Assembly (NCBI GenBank): GCA_029936935.1
Contig: JAPYRQ010000009.1
Coordinates: forward strand, 1-40,182
Reading direction: 5' to 3'
Origin: Dehalococcoidia bacterium
Lineage (GTDB): Bacteria; Chloroflexota; Dehalococcoidia; Lucifugimonadales; UBA1127
DNA: 40,182 bases
Positions 176 through 19,387 of the stretch are shown one piece after another. The notes under the pieces were generated by a model. The model saw only the letters and a list, made by a program, of their open reading frames with translations, made no database searches and was not told the DNA's origin. Position 1 is the first letter of the stretch. Each line of letters opens with the position of its first letter. The position numbers and the translations under genes were made by a program.

Positions 176-561
176 CTAGGGAGATTCTCCTGGCAACAGG
201 AGAGATTCCAGGTCGGTGGAACCCGTATCTCAGTCCAAGGACTGAGGAAACCCCTCCTAATCTTCGGGGGTCTTATACGGAGAATTCCAGAGGATACTCA
301 AAAACCGTAACTGGACCCTTCTTCTCACTCTTTCATTCTTAAGGCGTCTTTTTTTGCCTTCCGTTATCGCTCGGGAGTCAGAAAGACGACTCCTTGCTAT
401 AGCCTCGGACTTTAGTCTCCACATGCGGTATTAGTCACCACTCTCACTCCCGGCTTCAGTCTCCATGTAAAGTTAGTCTCCACATACATGTGCTATCATA
501 TTTCCCTAGGGGAAAATTTCAGGGGCTGTCACCACGACTGCCTCTTGGGGAGGGTTCCACA
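176..561 (+). other. 16S trailer and intergenic region with hairpins
   Basis: No gene is seen here. Just past the 16S end there is a perfect 6-bp hairpin with a GCAA tetraloop (CTCCTG at 187-192 with CAGGAG at 197-202). A second hairpin, CTCAGTC with GACTGAG, lies at 229-246. An ACCCC/GGGGT stem lies at 250-271, and AAGGC/GCCTT encloses a T-run at 341-360. These are probably rRNA processing or termination structures. Further hairpins are GGAGTC/GACTCC (374-393) and TTTCCC/GGGAAA (501-515). A repeat cluster at 412-485 is listed separately. Confidence 0.6.
412..485 (+). repeat. short direct repeats TTAGTCTCCACAT, two exact and two imperfect copies
   Basis: TTAGTCTCCACAT occurs exactly at 412-424 and 473-485. 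Imperfect copies lie between them: TTAGTCACCAC at about 431 and TTCAGTCTCCATG at about 455. Spacing is roughly 18-24 nt. The array is followed by the small palindrome CACATACATGTG (481-492), about 70 nt before the start of the first dioxygenase gene. It could be an array of regulator sites. The function is unknown. Confidence 0.55.
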
Positions 562-1635
562 ATGGCTAAAATCGTCTTAGGCCTCGGTACGTCCCACAGC
601 CCAATGCTGGCACAGCCGCCAGAGCTATGGGCAGTGCATGGTGAGAACGATGCACGCAACAAAGAATTGGTCTTCCCACCGGAAGGACTCGTCTACTCCT
701 ATGAAGAGGCTCTTGAGCGAGCGGATCCCGGTATTGCCAAGCAGGTCAACGTAGAGCACTTCACCAAGCAACACGCCAACCTGACCAAAGCCATTGATGA
801 GATGGCAAAGAGCCTGGCAGATGCCAAGCCGGACGCCGTCATCATCATCAGCGATGACCAGGATGAAGTCATGTTTGAAGACAACATGCCTATGTTCTCC
901 ATCTACTGGGGCGATACCATGCCCCTCATCGCTCGCATACCCCCGGACACCGCGCCTGCTCCCATCAAAGCAATGGCATGGGGCTACGGCGATGTGTCTA
1001 TGGACGTGCCCGTGAACGCGGAGCTAGGCCGACACATCATTGAGCACATGATCGACAACGAGTTCGATGTGTCCCATTCCAAGTACCTGCGTGAAGAGGT
1101 CGGGGGCACCATCGCCCGTCGATATCCCACACCGGACGGCGAATCCGATTACACACGGGTAACAGAACCTAAAAAGGGCGCCATGCCCCACGGGTTCAGC
1201 TTTGTAGTGAAGCGATTGATGAACAACAAGCCCATGCCCATCGTTCCCATCTCCCTGAACACCTGCTACCCGCCCAACCAGCCGTCTCCCAAGCGCAGCT
1301 TCGCCTTCGGTCAACAGATCCGCAGGGCGGTAGAGTCCTGGGCCACGGACGCGCGCGTAGCGGTCATTGCTTCCGGCGGGTTGAGCCACTTCGTCGTTGA
1401 CGAGGAACTGGACCGTGCAGCGTTGAAGGCAATGGTGGAGAACGATGGTGAAGCGCTGGCCAACCTCCCCAAGCATCGCCTGAACTCAGCAGCATCGGAG
1501 ACCCGCAACTGGGTAGCTGCAGCAGGCGCATCGGAGCACCTGAAAGCAGAGATTCTGGCCTATGAACCTGTCTATCGCACACCTGCCGGCACCGGCGGTG
1601 GCTGGGGCATGGTTCGCTGGAACGGCAGCAAGTAG
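562..1635 (+). CDS. LigB-type (class III) extradiol ring-cleavage dioxygenase, paralog 1
   Basis: This is a 357-aa member of the LigB superfamily, whose members open catecholic rings next to the diol using Fe(II) and O2. Recognised features are His12 in GTSHSPML, aligning with LigB His12; His276 in GGLSHF, aligning with the catalytic His195; and Glu313 in ASETRNW, aligning with Glu242. The second ligand position (LigB His61) appears as Gln100 in SDDQDE. No LigA-type small subunit lies nearby. The ATG at 562 was chosen over the GTG at 490 because GGGGAGGG sits just upstream and the family starts with the beta strand MAKIVLG. A perfect terminator follows. The substrate is not known; a gallate-, protocatechuate- or DODA-like catechol is plausible from the LigJ and aldolase neighbours. 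Confidence 0.88.
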   Translation: MAKIVLGLGTSHSPMLAQPPELWAVHGENDARNKELVFPPEGLVYSYEEALERADPGIAKQVNVEHFTKQHANLTKAIDEMAKSLADAKPDAVIIISDDQDEVMFEDNMPMFSIYWGDTMPLIARIPPDTAPAPIKAMAWGYGDVSMDVPVNAELGRHIIEHMIDNEFDVSHSKYLREEVGGTIARRYPTPDGESDYTRVTEPKKGAMPHGFSFVVKRLMNNKPMPIVPISLNTCYPPNQPSPKRSFAFGQQIRRAVESWATDARVAVIASGGLSHFVVDEELDRAALKAMVENDGEALANLPKHRLNSAASETRNWVAAAGASEHLKAEILAYEPVYRTPAGTGGGWGMVRWNGSK

Positions 1636-1662
1636 CCCACCAGCAACACTCCTGATACGGAT

Positions 1663-1698
1663 AAAGAAGGGGCGTACGCATACGTACGCCCCTTCTTT
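1663..1698. terminator. strong bidirectional intrinsic terminator
   Basis: A perfect 16-bp stem, AAAGAAGGGGCGTACG with its complement, closes on a CATA loop. It ends in TTCTTTTA on the plus strand and has an A-rich 5' side, so it could act in both directions. It lies 28 nt after the first LigB stop codon. Confidence 0.9.
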
Positions 1699-1767
1699 TA
1701 TTGCCCAAGACCACAGGACTCGTTATGCATCCTATGCAACCAGCCACTTTCACAGCGCGCACAAGAC

Positions 1768-17474: not shown

Positions 17475-17509
17475 ATCGCAGCGTAGACTGCCGAGCAAGG
17501 AGGATTAGG

Positions 17510-18409
17510 ATGAAGCTGGTATTCTTTGACGACTACAAGCTTGGAGTCCTGAACAAGGATGAGACTCGGGTGATTGACATGTCGTTGACCCTTGAGGAAT
17601 TGCCCCGCGTGGGCCCGGGCGACTACATGTGCAGGCTCATTGAGAAATGGTCCGGTTACAAGTCCCGCCTGCAAACCGCCATGTTGGATATGCCGGGAGT
17701 CCCCATTGAAGATGTACACTTGCGTGCGCCTATCCCCAAGCCCGGCAAGATACTGTGCATGGCTGCCAACTATCTGGAGAACGGCACTCTCACGGAGCCA
17801 CGTCCGATCAACGGGTTCCTCAAGAACCCTGATGCAGTCATCGGCGACGGCGACACCATTGTGATTCCGCCTGAAGACGCCGATATCTTCCACCATGAGG
17901 CAGAGCTTGGCCTGGTCATAGGTAAGAAGGCCAGGAACATCTCAGAGGATGAAGCGTATAACTACGTTTTCGGCTACACCAACTTCATCGATGTGTCTGC
18001 CAGAGGCCTTGGCCCCAAGGGGTCAGACGTCTTCCTTCAGTCGAAGTCCTATCACACCTTTGCACCTATGGGCCCGTATCTGGTAACTGCCGATGAAGTC
18101 CCCAATCCCCAGGACACCAACGTGAAGCTCTGGGTCAACGGTGGACTGAACCAGGACTACAGCACCAGCGACATGGGCCACTCCATTCCCAAGACCATTG
18201 CGTGGCTCTCATCCATCACTACGTTGAACCCGGGCGACGTAATCGCTCTGGGAACCAACCACCAGGGTCTGGGTTCGCTGCAGGACGGCGATGTCGTTGA
18301 GCGAGAGACCCCCGGCCTTGGCAAGCTCACCGTGAATGTGTCCGAGCCGAAGAAGCGCACATGGGATCGCGGAGTAGATCAAGCAATGGCAGACAGGATG
18401 CGAGGCTAG
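17510..18409 (+). CDS. fumarylacetoacetate hydrolase (FAH) family protein, copy 1
   Basis: This 299-aa protein has an N-terminal FAA-like domain and the FAH C-terminal fold. FHHEAELGLVIGK carries the ExE metal-binding pair, NFIDVSARG carries the Asp ligand, and GTNHQGLG with LQDGDVVERETPGLG is the usual end of the active site. Family members are Mg-dependent hydrolases, hydratases or decarboxylases of 2-oxo-enoic acids, including products of meta-cleavage. AAGGAGG precedes the ATG. It is 35 nt downstream of the LigJ pair in the same direction, so a shared operon is likely. It could process the ring-opened product where LigI is absent, but this is inference. Confidence 0.85.
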   Translation: MKLVFFDDYKLGVLNKDETRVIDMSLTLEELPRVGPGDYMCRLIEKWSGYKSRLQTAMLDMPGVPIEDVHLRAPIPKPGKILCMAANYLENGTLTEPRPINGFLKNPDAVIGDGDTIVIPPEDADIFHHEAELGLVIGKKARNISEDEAYNYVFGYTNFIDVSARGLGPKGSDVFLQSKSYHTFAPMGPYLVTADEVPNPQDTNVKLWVNGGLNQDYSTSDMGHSIPKTIAWLSSITTLNPGDVIALGTNHQGLGSLQDGDVVERETPGLGKLTVNVSEPKKRTWDRGVDQAMADRMRG

Positions 18410-18463
18410 GCCTGGCAGACGAGTCCAAAGCAATTACTCTCGTTTAGGAGAAAGGGAACTCTT

Positions 18464-19387
18464 ATGAAGCTTGTGATGTACAACAACTACCAGTTAGGAC
18501 TGTATCAGGACGATAAGGTGTACAACCTGTCTGAGTCTCTGACTGAGATAAACGCCCCAACCCCCCAGGACATGATTAATGCCGTCATTGCGGATTTTGA
18601 AGGCACATACAGGGCTAGGATTCTGGAGATCGCAGAGAAAGTCCAACCTATCCCCATGGATCAAGTTCACCTGCGCCCACCGCTGCCACGCCCCGGTAAG
18701 ATCGTAGCAATGGCAGCCAACTACTTCGAGAACGGCGCGTTGAGTGAACCCAAGCCCCTCAATGGCTTTTTGAAGTCGCCGGAGTCCGTCATTGGTGAGG
18801 GTGAGACCGTCGTCCTCCCCGCCGGACACCAGGCTGCCGTGTTCCACCACGAAGCGGAACTTGGCGTCGTCATCGGCAAGACCGCCGCCAACGTCTCAGA
18901 GAAAGACGCGTACAGCCATATCTTTGGCTACGTGAACTTCAACGACGTGTCTGCCCGAGGTCTCCACCCCACCAGCTTCCTATGGATGAAGTCCCACGAT
19001 ACCTTTGGGCCCATGGGGCCTTATCTGGTCACAGCCGACGAGATAGCCGACGCCCAGAACCTCCAGGTGCGCCTGTGGGTCAACGGTGAAATCCGACAGG
19101 ACTACAACACCAGCGACATGGGCCACAAGATTCCCAAGATGATTGAGTGGCTGACTTCTATCGTGCAGCTTGATCCGGGTGACCTCATCGCTTCCGGCAC
19201 CAACCACCAGGGTCTCGGTCCCATCCAGAACGGCGATGTCATGGAGATGGAGATTGCAGGCCTGGGCAAGATAACGGTCAACGTCTCAGACGAGTTGAAC
19301 CGTGAATGGCACCGGGGGACGGACAGTGACATGGCAGACTGGGTTGCTGGACGGACTGCTGAGCCACCAACCTGGGCAAAACGCTAA
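18464..19387 (+). CDS. fumarylacetoacetate hydrolase (FAH) family protein, copy 2
   Basis: This 307-aa protein is a tandem paralog of the previous gene. It shares MKLVxxNNYQLG, VAMAANYFENG, GFLKSPESVIG, FHHEAELGVVIGK (ExE ligands), NFNDVSARG (Asp ligand) and GTNHQGLGPIQNGD. The C-terminal tail is longer by about 8 residues. TAGGAGAAAGGGAA precedes the ATG, 54 nt after the previous stop. A terminator follows 54 nt after the stop, so this probably ends the LigJ-LigJ-FAH-FAH operon. FAH proteins are usually homodimers; a pair of co-expressed paralogs could form heterodimers (speculative). Confidence 0.85.
   Translation: MKLVMYNNYQLGLYQDDKVYNLSESLTEINAPTPQDMINAVIADFEGTYRARILEIAEKVQPIPMDQVHLRPPLPRPGKIVAMAANYFENGALSEPKPLNGFLKSPESVIGEGETVVLPAGHQAAVFHHEAELGVVIGKTAANVSEKDAYSHIFGYVNFNDVSARGLHPTSFLWMKSHDTFGPMGPYLVTADEIADAQNLQVRLWVNGEIRQDYNTSDMGHKIPKMIEWLTSIVQLDPGDLIASGTNHQGLGPIQNGDVMEMEIAGLGKITVNVSDELNREWHRGTDSDMADWVAGRTAEPPTWAKR

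What the first reader, a model, noticed from the sequence alone, without database searches (positions are those of the whole stretch)
490..19387. Paralog-expanded oxidative island with nearly every enzyme class in pairs or trios
Seen: Rieske x3, LigB-type x2, LigJ-type x3, RraA/CHA-aldolase-like x2, FAH x2, VOC x3, with four tandem pairs. Known: LigB, LigJ and CHA aldolase are successive parts of the protocatechuate/gallate 4,5-cleavage pathway. Inference: a modular pathway that widens the range of aromatic-like compounds used, as proposed for SAR202 bacteria. LigC, LigI, LigA and any dedicated aromatic uptake system are absent, so this is either a variant of the known pathway or one completed elsewhere in the genome.
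Basis: partly seen in the sequence, partly recalled or inferred. Interest (0 to 1): 0.75.

Follow-up and report, generated by a model that had tools for sequence, protein, structure and literature searches.

The report
SAR202 aromatic ring-cleavage and lower-pathway locus
A marine SAR202 bacterium carries a conserved gene block that probably opens carboxylated aromatic rings and cuts the products to pyruvate; part of it recurs on catabolic plasmids of soil bacteria, so it may supply the lower pathway that earlier SAR202 genome papers could not reconstruct.

Summary
The gene inventory is real: 3 Rieske, 2 LigB, 3 Amidohydro_2, 2 RraA, 2 FAH and 3 VOC genes on a 40 kb contig of a 2.05 Mb SAR202-type Chloroflexota MAG. 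The "paralog expansion" reading needs correction. One "LigJ" (1916-2911) belongs to the LigY (meta-cleavage C-C hydrolase) clade. The two RraA genes are separate, deeply diverged aldolase types; they are the only RraA genes in the genome and recur together with the LigY-type gene, often with LigB, on proteobacterial and rhodococcal plasmids. The three Rieske genes are scattered picks from 59 genomic copies. Only LigB1/LigB2 and FAH1/FAH2 test as sister duplicates; VOC1/VOC2 are probably a third pair. LigA is absent and no LigC or LigI orthologue was found, so the standard protocatechuate 4,5-pathway is not encoded. Best reading: LigZ/LigY-like and LigJ-like branches converging on HMG/CHA-type aldolases, fed by Rieske oxygenases. 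Every LigB-like protein of this family that was checked has Gln where LigB has an iron-ligand His. Large aromatic-oxygenase expansions in SAR202 are already published. New here are the cross-phylum cassette and the modified iron site. No activity was shown.

The parts
562..1635 (+). LigB1: LigB-type extradiol dioxygenase, DDQ variant (ORF opens at GTG 490; the conserved protein starts at ATG 562)
   Evidence: Pfam LigB 8.7e-23; AF2 fold pLDDT 91.5, best PDB matches DesB and LigAB; iron-ligand His replaced by Gln, the other catalytic residues kept
1916..2911 (+). AH1: LigY-type amidohydrolase (meta-cleavage product hydrolase clade)
   Evidence: 313 bits to LigY, 211 to LigJ; LigY clade, split support 1.0; carries the SPRP and Tyr190 states of LigY
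3024..4094 (+). LigB2: LigB-type extradiol dioxygenase, DDQ variant, 60% identical to LigB1
   Evidence: Pfam LigB; sister to LigB1, support 0.96; conserved beside AH1 in the genus
4254..5522 (+). Rie1: Rieske oxygenase, LigXa_C type (ORF opens at 4110); present at this place in the window genome only
   Evidence: Rieske + LigXa_C; not matched between LigB2 and RraA1 in the other genus members; closest paralogue elsewhere in the genome, 63%
5725..6453 (+). RraA1: RraA-fold aldolase-like protein with G-X20-R-D-X2-E motif
   Evidence: Pfam RraA-like; cross-phylum clade, support 0.98
6456..7112 (+). RraA2: RraA-fold aldolase-like protein with D-X20-R-D motif
   Evidence: Pfam RraA-like; separate cross-phylum clade, support 0.99
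7157..7852 (+). SLOG cluster 4 / TIGR00725-like protein
7849..8265 (-). VOC1 (glyoxalase superfamily)
   Evidence: 69% identical to VOC2
8296..8799 (-). VOC2 (glyoxalase superfamily)
8798..9211 (+). F420-dependent (Ddn-type) nitroreductase-family protein
9208..9546 (-). VOC3 (glyoxalase superfamily)
9564..10313 (-). SDR oxidoreductase
10456..12468 (+). Alpha/beta hydrolase, Abhydrolase_10 family
   Evidence: conserved in the genus
12603..13907 (+). Rie2: Rieske oxygenase, LigXa_C type; conserved in the genus
   Evidence: closest paralogue elsewhere in the genome, 68%
14001..15263 (+). Rie3: Rieske oxygenase, LigXa_C type
   Evidence: closest paralogue elsewhere in the genome, 63%
15434..16444 (+). 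AH2: LigJ-clade 4-oxalomesaconate hydratase-like
   Evidence: 493 bits to PDB 2gwg; clade with LigJ, support 1.0; conserved Arg of the SPRA motif is Thr
16470..17474 (+). AH3: LigJ-related amidohydrolase that split before LigJ and AH2
   Evidence: 407 bits to 2gwg; tree
17510..18409 (+). FAH1: fumarylacetoacetate-hydrolase family
   Evidence: full-length match to maleylpyruvate hydrolase 6jvv
18464..19387 (+). FAH2: fumarylacetoacetate-hydrolase family, sister of FAH1
19473..20771 (+). MFS transporter, EntS/MFS_3-like; candidate transporter of the locus
   Evidence: kept next to FAH2 in G003

Best explanation
The locus encodes ring cleavage and the lower pathway for carboxylated catechol-type aromatics in two branches. 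Branch A: a LigZ-like extradiol dioxygenase (LigB1/LigB2) opens the ring of a substituted, carboxylated catechol. The LigY-type AH1 hydrolyses the C-C bond of the meta-cleavage product, releasing the substituent as an acid plus a 4-carboxy-2-hydroxypenta-2,4-dienoate-like (CHPD-like) fragment; [quoted passage not shown] HMG and CHA are the two substrates of RraA-fold class II pyruvate aldolases, and RraA1/RraA2 are the only RraA-fold proteins found in the genome, so both branches would end in pyruvate (plus oxaloacetate). Rie2 (conserved) and Rie1/Rie3 (variable), with dozens of Rieske paralogues elsewhere, would do the preceding hydroxylation or O-demethylation. Shown: families, clades, motifs, conservation, absence of LigA, no LigC or LigI orthologue. 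Inferred: the reactions, substrates, branch convergence, and the assignment of the hydration step to any gene.
For: Trees separate LigY-type AH1 from LigJ-type AH2/AH3 with support 1.0. A LigY-type gene, RraA1 and RraA2 co-occur on plasmids of Bradyrhizobium, Aminobacter, Rhodococcus and Polymorphobacter together with a DDQ LigB, and on Novosphingobium pNL1 and pLA1 and Sphingobium fuliginis p1 without LigB. The Polymorphobacter LigY-type protein is 70% identical to solved LigY and lies beside a DDQ LigB. DDQ LigB lies near a LigJ homologue (59-62%) in Diaphorobacter, Cupriavidus and Acidovorax. RraA1 and RraA2 orthologues keep one metal-site motif each. Only two RraA genes in the genome. LigA absent with a positive control; no LigC or LigI orthologue. 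Core order kept in five genus members and, for the left block, in SAR202-VII-2.
Against: No activity is known for any of these proteins. The LigB-like proteins lack one canonical iron ligand (His to Gln). Aminobacter, Rhodococcus, Polymorphobacter and SAR202-VII-2 clusters carry a third RraA-fold protein, so the RraA1/RraA2 pair may do another step, such as a hydration. RraA2 also occurs without RraA1 in some Chloroflexota. AH2 has Thr for a conserved Arg of LigJ. No Rieske ferredoxin or reductase gene is in the island.
Confidence: 0.55

Rival explanations
1. A gallate-type 4,5-cleavage pathway only: DDQ LigB cleaves gallate-like trihydroxybenzoates to oxalomesaconate, the amidohydrolases are hydratases, RraA cleaves CHA, and AH1 is simply another hydratase.
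For: LigB, LigJ and aldolase suffice without LigC/LigI; AH2 is strongly LigJ-like; DDQ LigB lies near LigJ on Diaphorobacter, Cupriavidus and Acidovorax plasmids.
Against: AH1 groups with LigY with support 1.0 and has its SPRP motif and Tyr190 state, and it is AH1, not AH2, that recurs with RraA1/RraA2.
Confidence: 0.2
2. The canonical protocatechuate 4,5-pathway, completed elsewhere in the genome.
For: LigB-, LigJ- and CHA-aldolase-family members are present.
Against: LigA is not found in this MAG or in the single-contig relative G002, while the positive control rings. The best LigC and LigI matches are weak and partial (24% and 30%). The MAG is 94.6% complete.
Confidence: 0.05
3. The DDQ proteins are not extradiol dioxygenases: loss of an iron-ligand His means another metal or another reaction (hydrolysis or isomerisation), and the locus processes non-aromatic oxidised organic matter.
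For: Gln is invariant at the position of LigB/DesB His59/61; SAR202 is known for unusual oxidative enzymes (PMC5395668).
Against: The first His ligand, the Glu ligand and the two catalytic His are kept in the DDQ proteins aligned; the neighbours are ring-cleavage lower-pathway enzymes in several phyla.
Confidence: 0.15
4. A loose collection of broad-specificity oxidative enzymes accumulated by duplication, with no single pathway.
For: Rieske genes are drawn from across the genome family and Rie1 occupies this place only in this genome.
Against: The LigB2/AH1/RraA1/RraA2 and AH2/AH3/FAH1/FAH2 blocks are conserved through the genus and the first recurs across phyla.
Confidence: 0.15

Closest known systems
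DDVA (5,5'-dehydrodivanillate) catabolic genes ligXa-ligZ-ligY of Sphingobium sp. SYK-6 (PMC6874591)
   Same: LigXa_C-type Rieske, LigB-superfamily dioxygenase and LigY-type hydrolase next to each other; AH1 lies in the LigY clade
   Different: AH1 is not a close orthologue of LigY (Polymorphobacter's is, at 70%); Rie1 sits here only in this one genome; RraA1/RraA2 adjoin; no ligW or ddvT identified in the island; substrate unknown; the LigZ sequence itself could not be compared
Protocatechuate/gallate 4,5-cleavage pathway (LigAB or DesB, LigC, LigI, LigJ, LigK)
   Same: LigJ-clade hydratase and HMG/CHA-aldolase-fold proteins; LigB-fold dioxygenase
   Different: LigA absent, no LigC or LigI orthologue; LigB has Gln at an iron-ligand His; RraA proteins score far below the LigK cut-off
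SAR202 group VII ring-hydroxylating dioxygenase expansion (Saw et al. 2020, PMC6946804) and SAR202-VII-2 aromatic genes (Colatriano et al. 2018, PMC6123686)
   Same: dozens of Rieske alpha subunits per genome; ring-cleaving dioxygenases, oxalomesaconate hydratase and HMG aldolase already reported; SAR202-VII-2 carries the same cassette
   Different: Colatriano et al. could not identify a complete pathway, and the text read here of these papers does not describe the LigB-LigY-RraA1-RraA2 block or the iron-site substitution
HMG/CHA aldolase and RraA family (PMC5065237)
   Same: RraA1 and RraA2 each carry one of the two metal-binding motifs described for this family
   Different: two types kept side by side in one cluster; activity untested

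Membership tests
Protocatechuate 4,5-cleavage pathway | LigA small subunit present | tested here: not met
   PF07746: none in G000 or G002; 2.2e-33 in the Sphingobium positive-control plasmid
Protocatechuate 4,5-cleavage pathway | LigC (CHMS dehydrogenase) orthologue | tested here: not met
   Query: Gfo/Idh/MocA gene next to ligAB in Sphingobium; best hit 24% over 196 aa, 46.7 bits
Protocatechuate 4,5-cleavage pathway | LigI (PDC hydrolase) orthologue | tested here: inconclusive
   Best hit 30%, 47.9 bits, but the query was a presumed LigI (amidohydrolase next to a LigJ homologue in Diaphorobacter), not a verified one
LigJ 4-oxalomesaconate hydratase | Clade membership and metal-site residues | tested here: met
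   AH2: 493 bits to 2gwg, LigJ clade support 1.0, HxH, His178, Glu284 kept; one conserved Arg is Thr
LigY meta-cleavage hydrolase | Clade membership and LigY-specific residues | tested here: met
   AH1: LigY side of the split, support 1.0; SPRP motif and Tyr at position 190. That these residues set the activity is from memory, untested
Class III (LigB-type) extradiol dioxygenase | LigB fold | tested here: met
   AF2 model pLDDT 91.5; Foldseek prob 1.00 to DesB and LigAB
Class III (LigB-type) extradiol dioxygenase | His-His-Glu iron ligands | tested here: not met
   Second His is Gln in all 19 aligned proteins and all 9 genomic copies; the first His and the Glu are kept in the 19 aligned
Class III (LigB-type) extradiol dioxygenase | Catalytic acid/base His pair (DesB His124/His192) | tested here: met
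   H210 and H276 invariant in 19 of 19; role of the pair from PMC3962378
HMG/CHA (RraA-fold) pyruvate aldolase | D-X20-R-D or G-X20-R-D-X2-E/D metal motif | tested here: met
   RraA2 and RraA1 respectively, in every cassette orthologue examined; that two motifs exist is in PMC5065237, their exact form is from memory
HMG/CHA (RraA-fold) pyruvate aldolase | Aldolase activity | not testable with these tools
   Needs enzyme assay
DDVA LigXZY pathway | Rieske O-demethylase conserved with LigZ/LigY | tested here: not met
   Rie1 lies there only in the window genome and not in the other genus members
SAR202 Rieske (RHD) expansion | Dozens of Rieske alpha subunits in one small genome | tested here: met
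   59 complete proteins in 2.05 Mb; first-look candidates 47-70 in the genus and three other genomes, 27 in one, 0-4 in the rest of 60 relatives

The most novel reading that the evidence does not exclude
An undescribed, widely spread branch of LigB-type dioxygenases works with a non-canonical iron site (His-Gln-Glu). Together with a LigY- or LigJ-type amidohydrolase and a pair of RraA aldolases it forms a compact ring-to-pyruvate cassette that passes between phyla and serves as the central aromatic lower pathway of some SAR202 bacteria, including disposal of the CHPD fragment that LigY releases.
Probability: 0.3. Interest if true: 0.68.

Novelty: new variant of a known kind. Interest (0 to 1): 0.5.

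Why it matters
SAR202 bacteria are abundant in the ocean and proposed to oxidise resistant dissolved organic matter, but two genome papers state that no complete aromatic pathway could be reconstructed (PMC5395668, PMC6123686). This locus offers a short, conserved candidate lower pathway with few genes to test. It also shows where naive annotation misleads: AH1 is LigY-type, the two RraA proteins are different aldolase types rather than duplicates, and the LigB-like proteins lack a canonical iron ligand. The RraA pair beside LigY homologues gives candidates for the use of the CHPD fragment of lignin biphenyls.

Tried and rejected
Single-sequence PDB search of LigB1 did not align the second iron-ligand region, nor did a profile search; resolved by fetching three annotated proteobacterial LigB proteins and using hhalign and MAFFT. 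Flavonoid and isoflavone (fde/ifc) clusters were considered as the known parent of the plasmid cassettes; the isoflavone paper describes FdeC-like ring cleavage by a glyoxalase-type protein and names no amidohydrolase or aldolase, so not pursued. Reading the left module as a DDVA ligXZY operon was rejected as literal because Rie1 is not conserved there. 'RraA1/RraA2 always paired' was rejected: RraA2 occurs without RraA1 in several Chloroflexota. Literature searches for a Gln iron ligand in LigB proteins found nothing relevant in the held library. A support value read after re-rooting was misplaced and was recomputed by bipartition.
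Full report
Setting. The window is contig C19 of a 2.05 Mb, 105-contig MAG (94.6% complete, 1.3% contaminated). LigB1 has its closest named relatives in marine Dehalococcoidia MAGs (88% and 78% identity) and then in Chloroflexota including SAR202-VII-2 and other SAR202 MAGs. The right half of the window is ordinary housekeeping: trehalose synthase, superoxide dismutase, haem and sirohaem synthesis, EngA-type GTPase, glycerol-3-phosphate enzymes.

Observation. LigB1 probably starts at 562 and Rie1 at about 4254 rather than at the longest-ORF starts (sequence; one search shows the conserved N-terminus of LigB1). 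Within-window identities: LigB1/2 60%, AH2/3 55%, AH1/AH3 40%, Rie1/3 50%, RraA1/2 29%, FAH1/2 55%, VOC1/2 69%.

Are these local duplicates? In a tree of 59 complete Rieske proteins of the genome, Rie1, Rie2 and Rie3 each pair with a gene elsewhere (63-68% identity). LigB1/LigB2 and FAH1/FAH2 are sister pairs within the genus (supports 0.96 and 0.96). AH2 groups with proteobacterial LigJ (support 1.0) and AH3 branches outside that group, so they are old paralogues. RraA1 and RraA2 fall in two deep cross-phylum clades (supports 0.98 and 0.99). The genome counts are 9 LigB, 26 Amidohydro_2, 8 FAH, 2 RraA.

LigY versus LigJ. AH1 scores 313 bits to LigY and 211 to LigJ; AH2 and AH3 show the reverse. 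The LigY/LigJ split has support 1.0. AH1 carries SPRP and Tyr at LigY position 190, where LigJ-type proteins have SP-x-A and Thr.

The cassette. A LigY-type amidohydrolase, RraA1 and RraA2 lie together on plasmids of Bradyrhizobium (with RidA and a divergent LigB), Aminobacter, Polymorphobacter and Rhodococcus koreensis (all with LigB), and on Novosphingobium pNL1, pLA1 and Sphingobium fuliginis p1 (with RidA, without LigB). RraA1 and RraA2 correspond one to one with their counterparts (44-54% identity, against 27-39% across types). Polymorphobacter's LigY-type protein is 70% identical to solved LigY. In Diaphorobacter, Cupriavidus and Acidovorax the same LigB type lies near a LigJ homologue instead. 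SAR202-VII-2 carries AH1-LigB-LigB-RraA1-RraA2 plus a third RraA. The pairing is not universal: in a sample of 400 Chloroflexota genomes RraA2 orthologues were found in 10 (the window genome included), and of the nine others three have RraA1 beside it.

Iron site. In an alignment of 19 LigB-like proteins from Chloroflexota, Rokubacteria, Acidimicrobiaceae, Proteobacteria and Rhodococcus, H12, H210, H276 and E313 are invariant, and so is Q100. hhalign to three annotated proteobacterial LigB proteins (probability 99.9) and MAFFT both place Q100 on the second iron-ligand His, His59 in DesB. All nine LigB-like proteins of this genome have DDQ; one of them (C43) has also lost the first His and the catalytic His and is probably not a dioxygenase. 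The AF2 model (pLDDT 91.5) matches DesB and LigAB best. Whether SYK-6 LigZ shares the Gln could not be checked.

Conservation in the genus. The blocks LigB2-AH1, RraA1-RraA2, VOC1/VOC2, Ddn, SDR, Abhydrolase_10 and AH2-AH3-FAH1-FAH2 recur in the other four genus genomes (one of them on short contigs), with rearrangement of LigB1; Rie2 is conserved, Rie3 was seen in one other genome, Rie1 in none. One relative has an extra AH2 copy. So the ring-cleavage and lower-pathway core is stable and the Rieske genes are the variable part.

Mechanism. LigA is absent (positive control rings), and no LigC or LigI orthologue was found (the LigI query was presumed), so protocatechuate would not be processed by the standard route. 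In SYK-6, LigZ and LigY turn OH-DDVA into 5-carboxyvanillate and CHPD (PMC6874591). By established chemistry, hydrating CHPD at C4 gives HMG, and the LigJ branch gives CHA; HMG and CHA are the two substrates of one aldolase class (PMC5065237). This makes the gene set coherent as two branches with a shared end. Which gene does the hydration, and the true substrates, are unknown. A third RraA-fold protein in several related clusters leaves open that the RraA1/RraA2 pair does a step other than the aldol cleavage.

Novelty. Large Rieske and ring-cleavage gene sets in SAR202 are published (PMC6946804: up to 62 copies in group VII; PMC6123686), as are oxalomesaconate hydratase and HMG aldolase annotations; both PMC5395668 and PMC6123686 say a complete pathway was not reconstructed. 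New here are the reclassification of AH1, the cross-phylum LigB/LigY/RraA1/RraA2 association, the sole-aldolase observation and the conserved Gln. All functional statements remain predictions.

Noticed in passing
genome G000, PF19301 hits: 59 complete LigXa_C-type Rieske oxygenases in a 2.05 Mb MAG, many in local runs (for example C87 and C97); best-hit identity median 66%.
   Followed up: partly
L007 (G000:C43) and L005 (G000:C26): L007: a LigB paralogue that keeps DDQ but has lost the first iron-ligand His (Arg) and the catalytic His. L005 lacks the His that acts as catalytic acid in DesB.
   Followed up: no
15434-16444: AH2 and its genus orthologues have Thr where LigJ has the conserved Arg of the SPRA motif; the Diaphorobacter homologue has Ile.
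   Followed up: no
L033, L035, L037, L157, L158: A RidA-family gene sits beside the LigY-type gene in Bradyrhizobium, Rhodococcus and sphingomonad plasmids but not in the SAR202 window.
   Followed up: no
L097 (G003): A third LigJ-type copy (82% to AH2) in tandem, suggesting continuing duplication at this spot.
   Followed up: no
L159, L160, L038: In Cupriavidus, Acidovorax and Diaphorobacter the DDQ LigB lies near a LigJ homologue; in the two annotated ones a second amidohydrolase and a citrate-lyase-type aldolase are also there, a possible alternative lower pathway.
   Followed up: partly
31766-32800: Sirohaem decarboxylase-like (NirDL-type) protein with two AsnC-type units within the haem/sirohaem gene group.
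   Followed up: no
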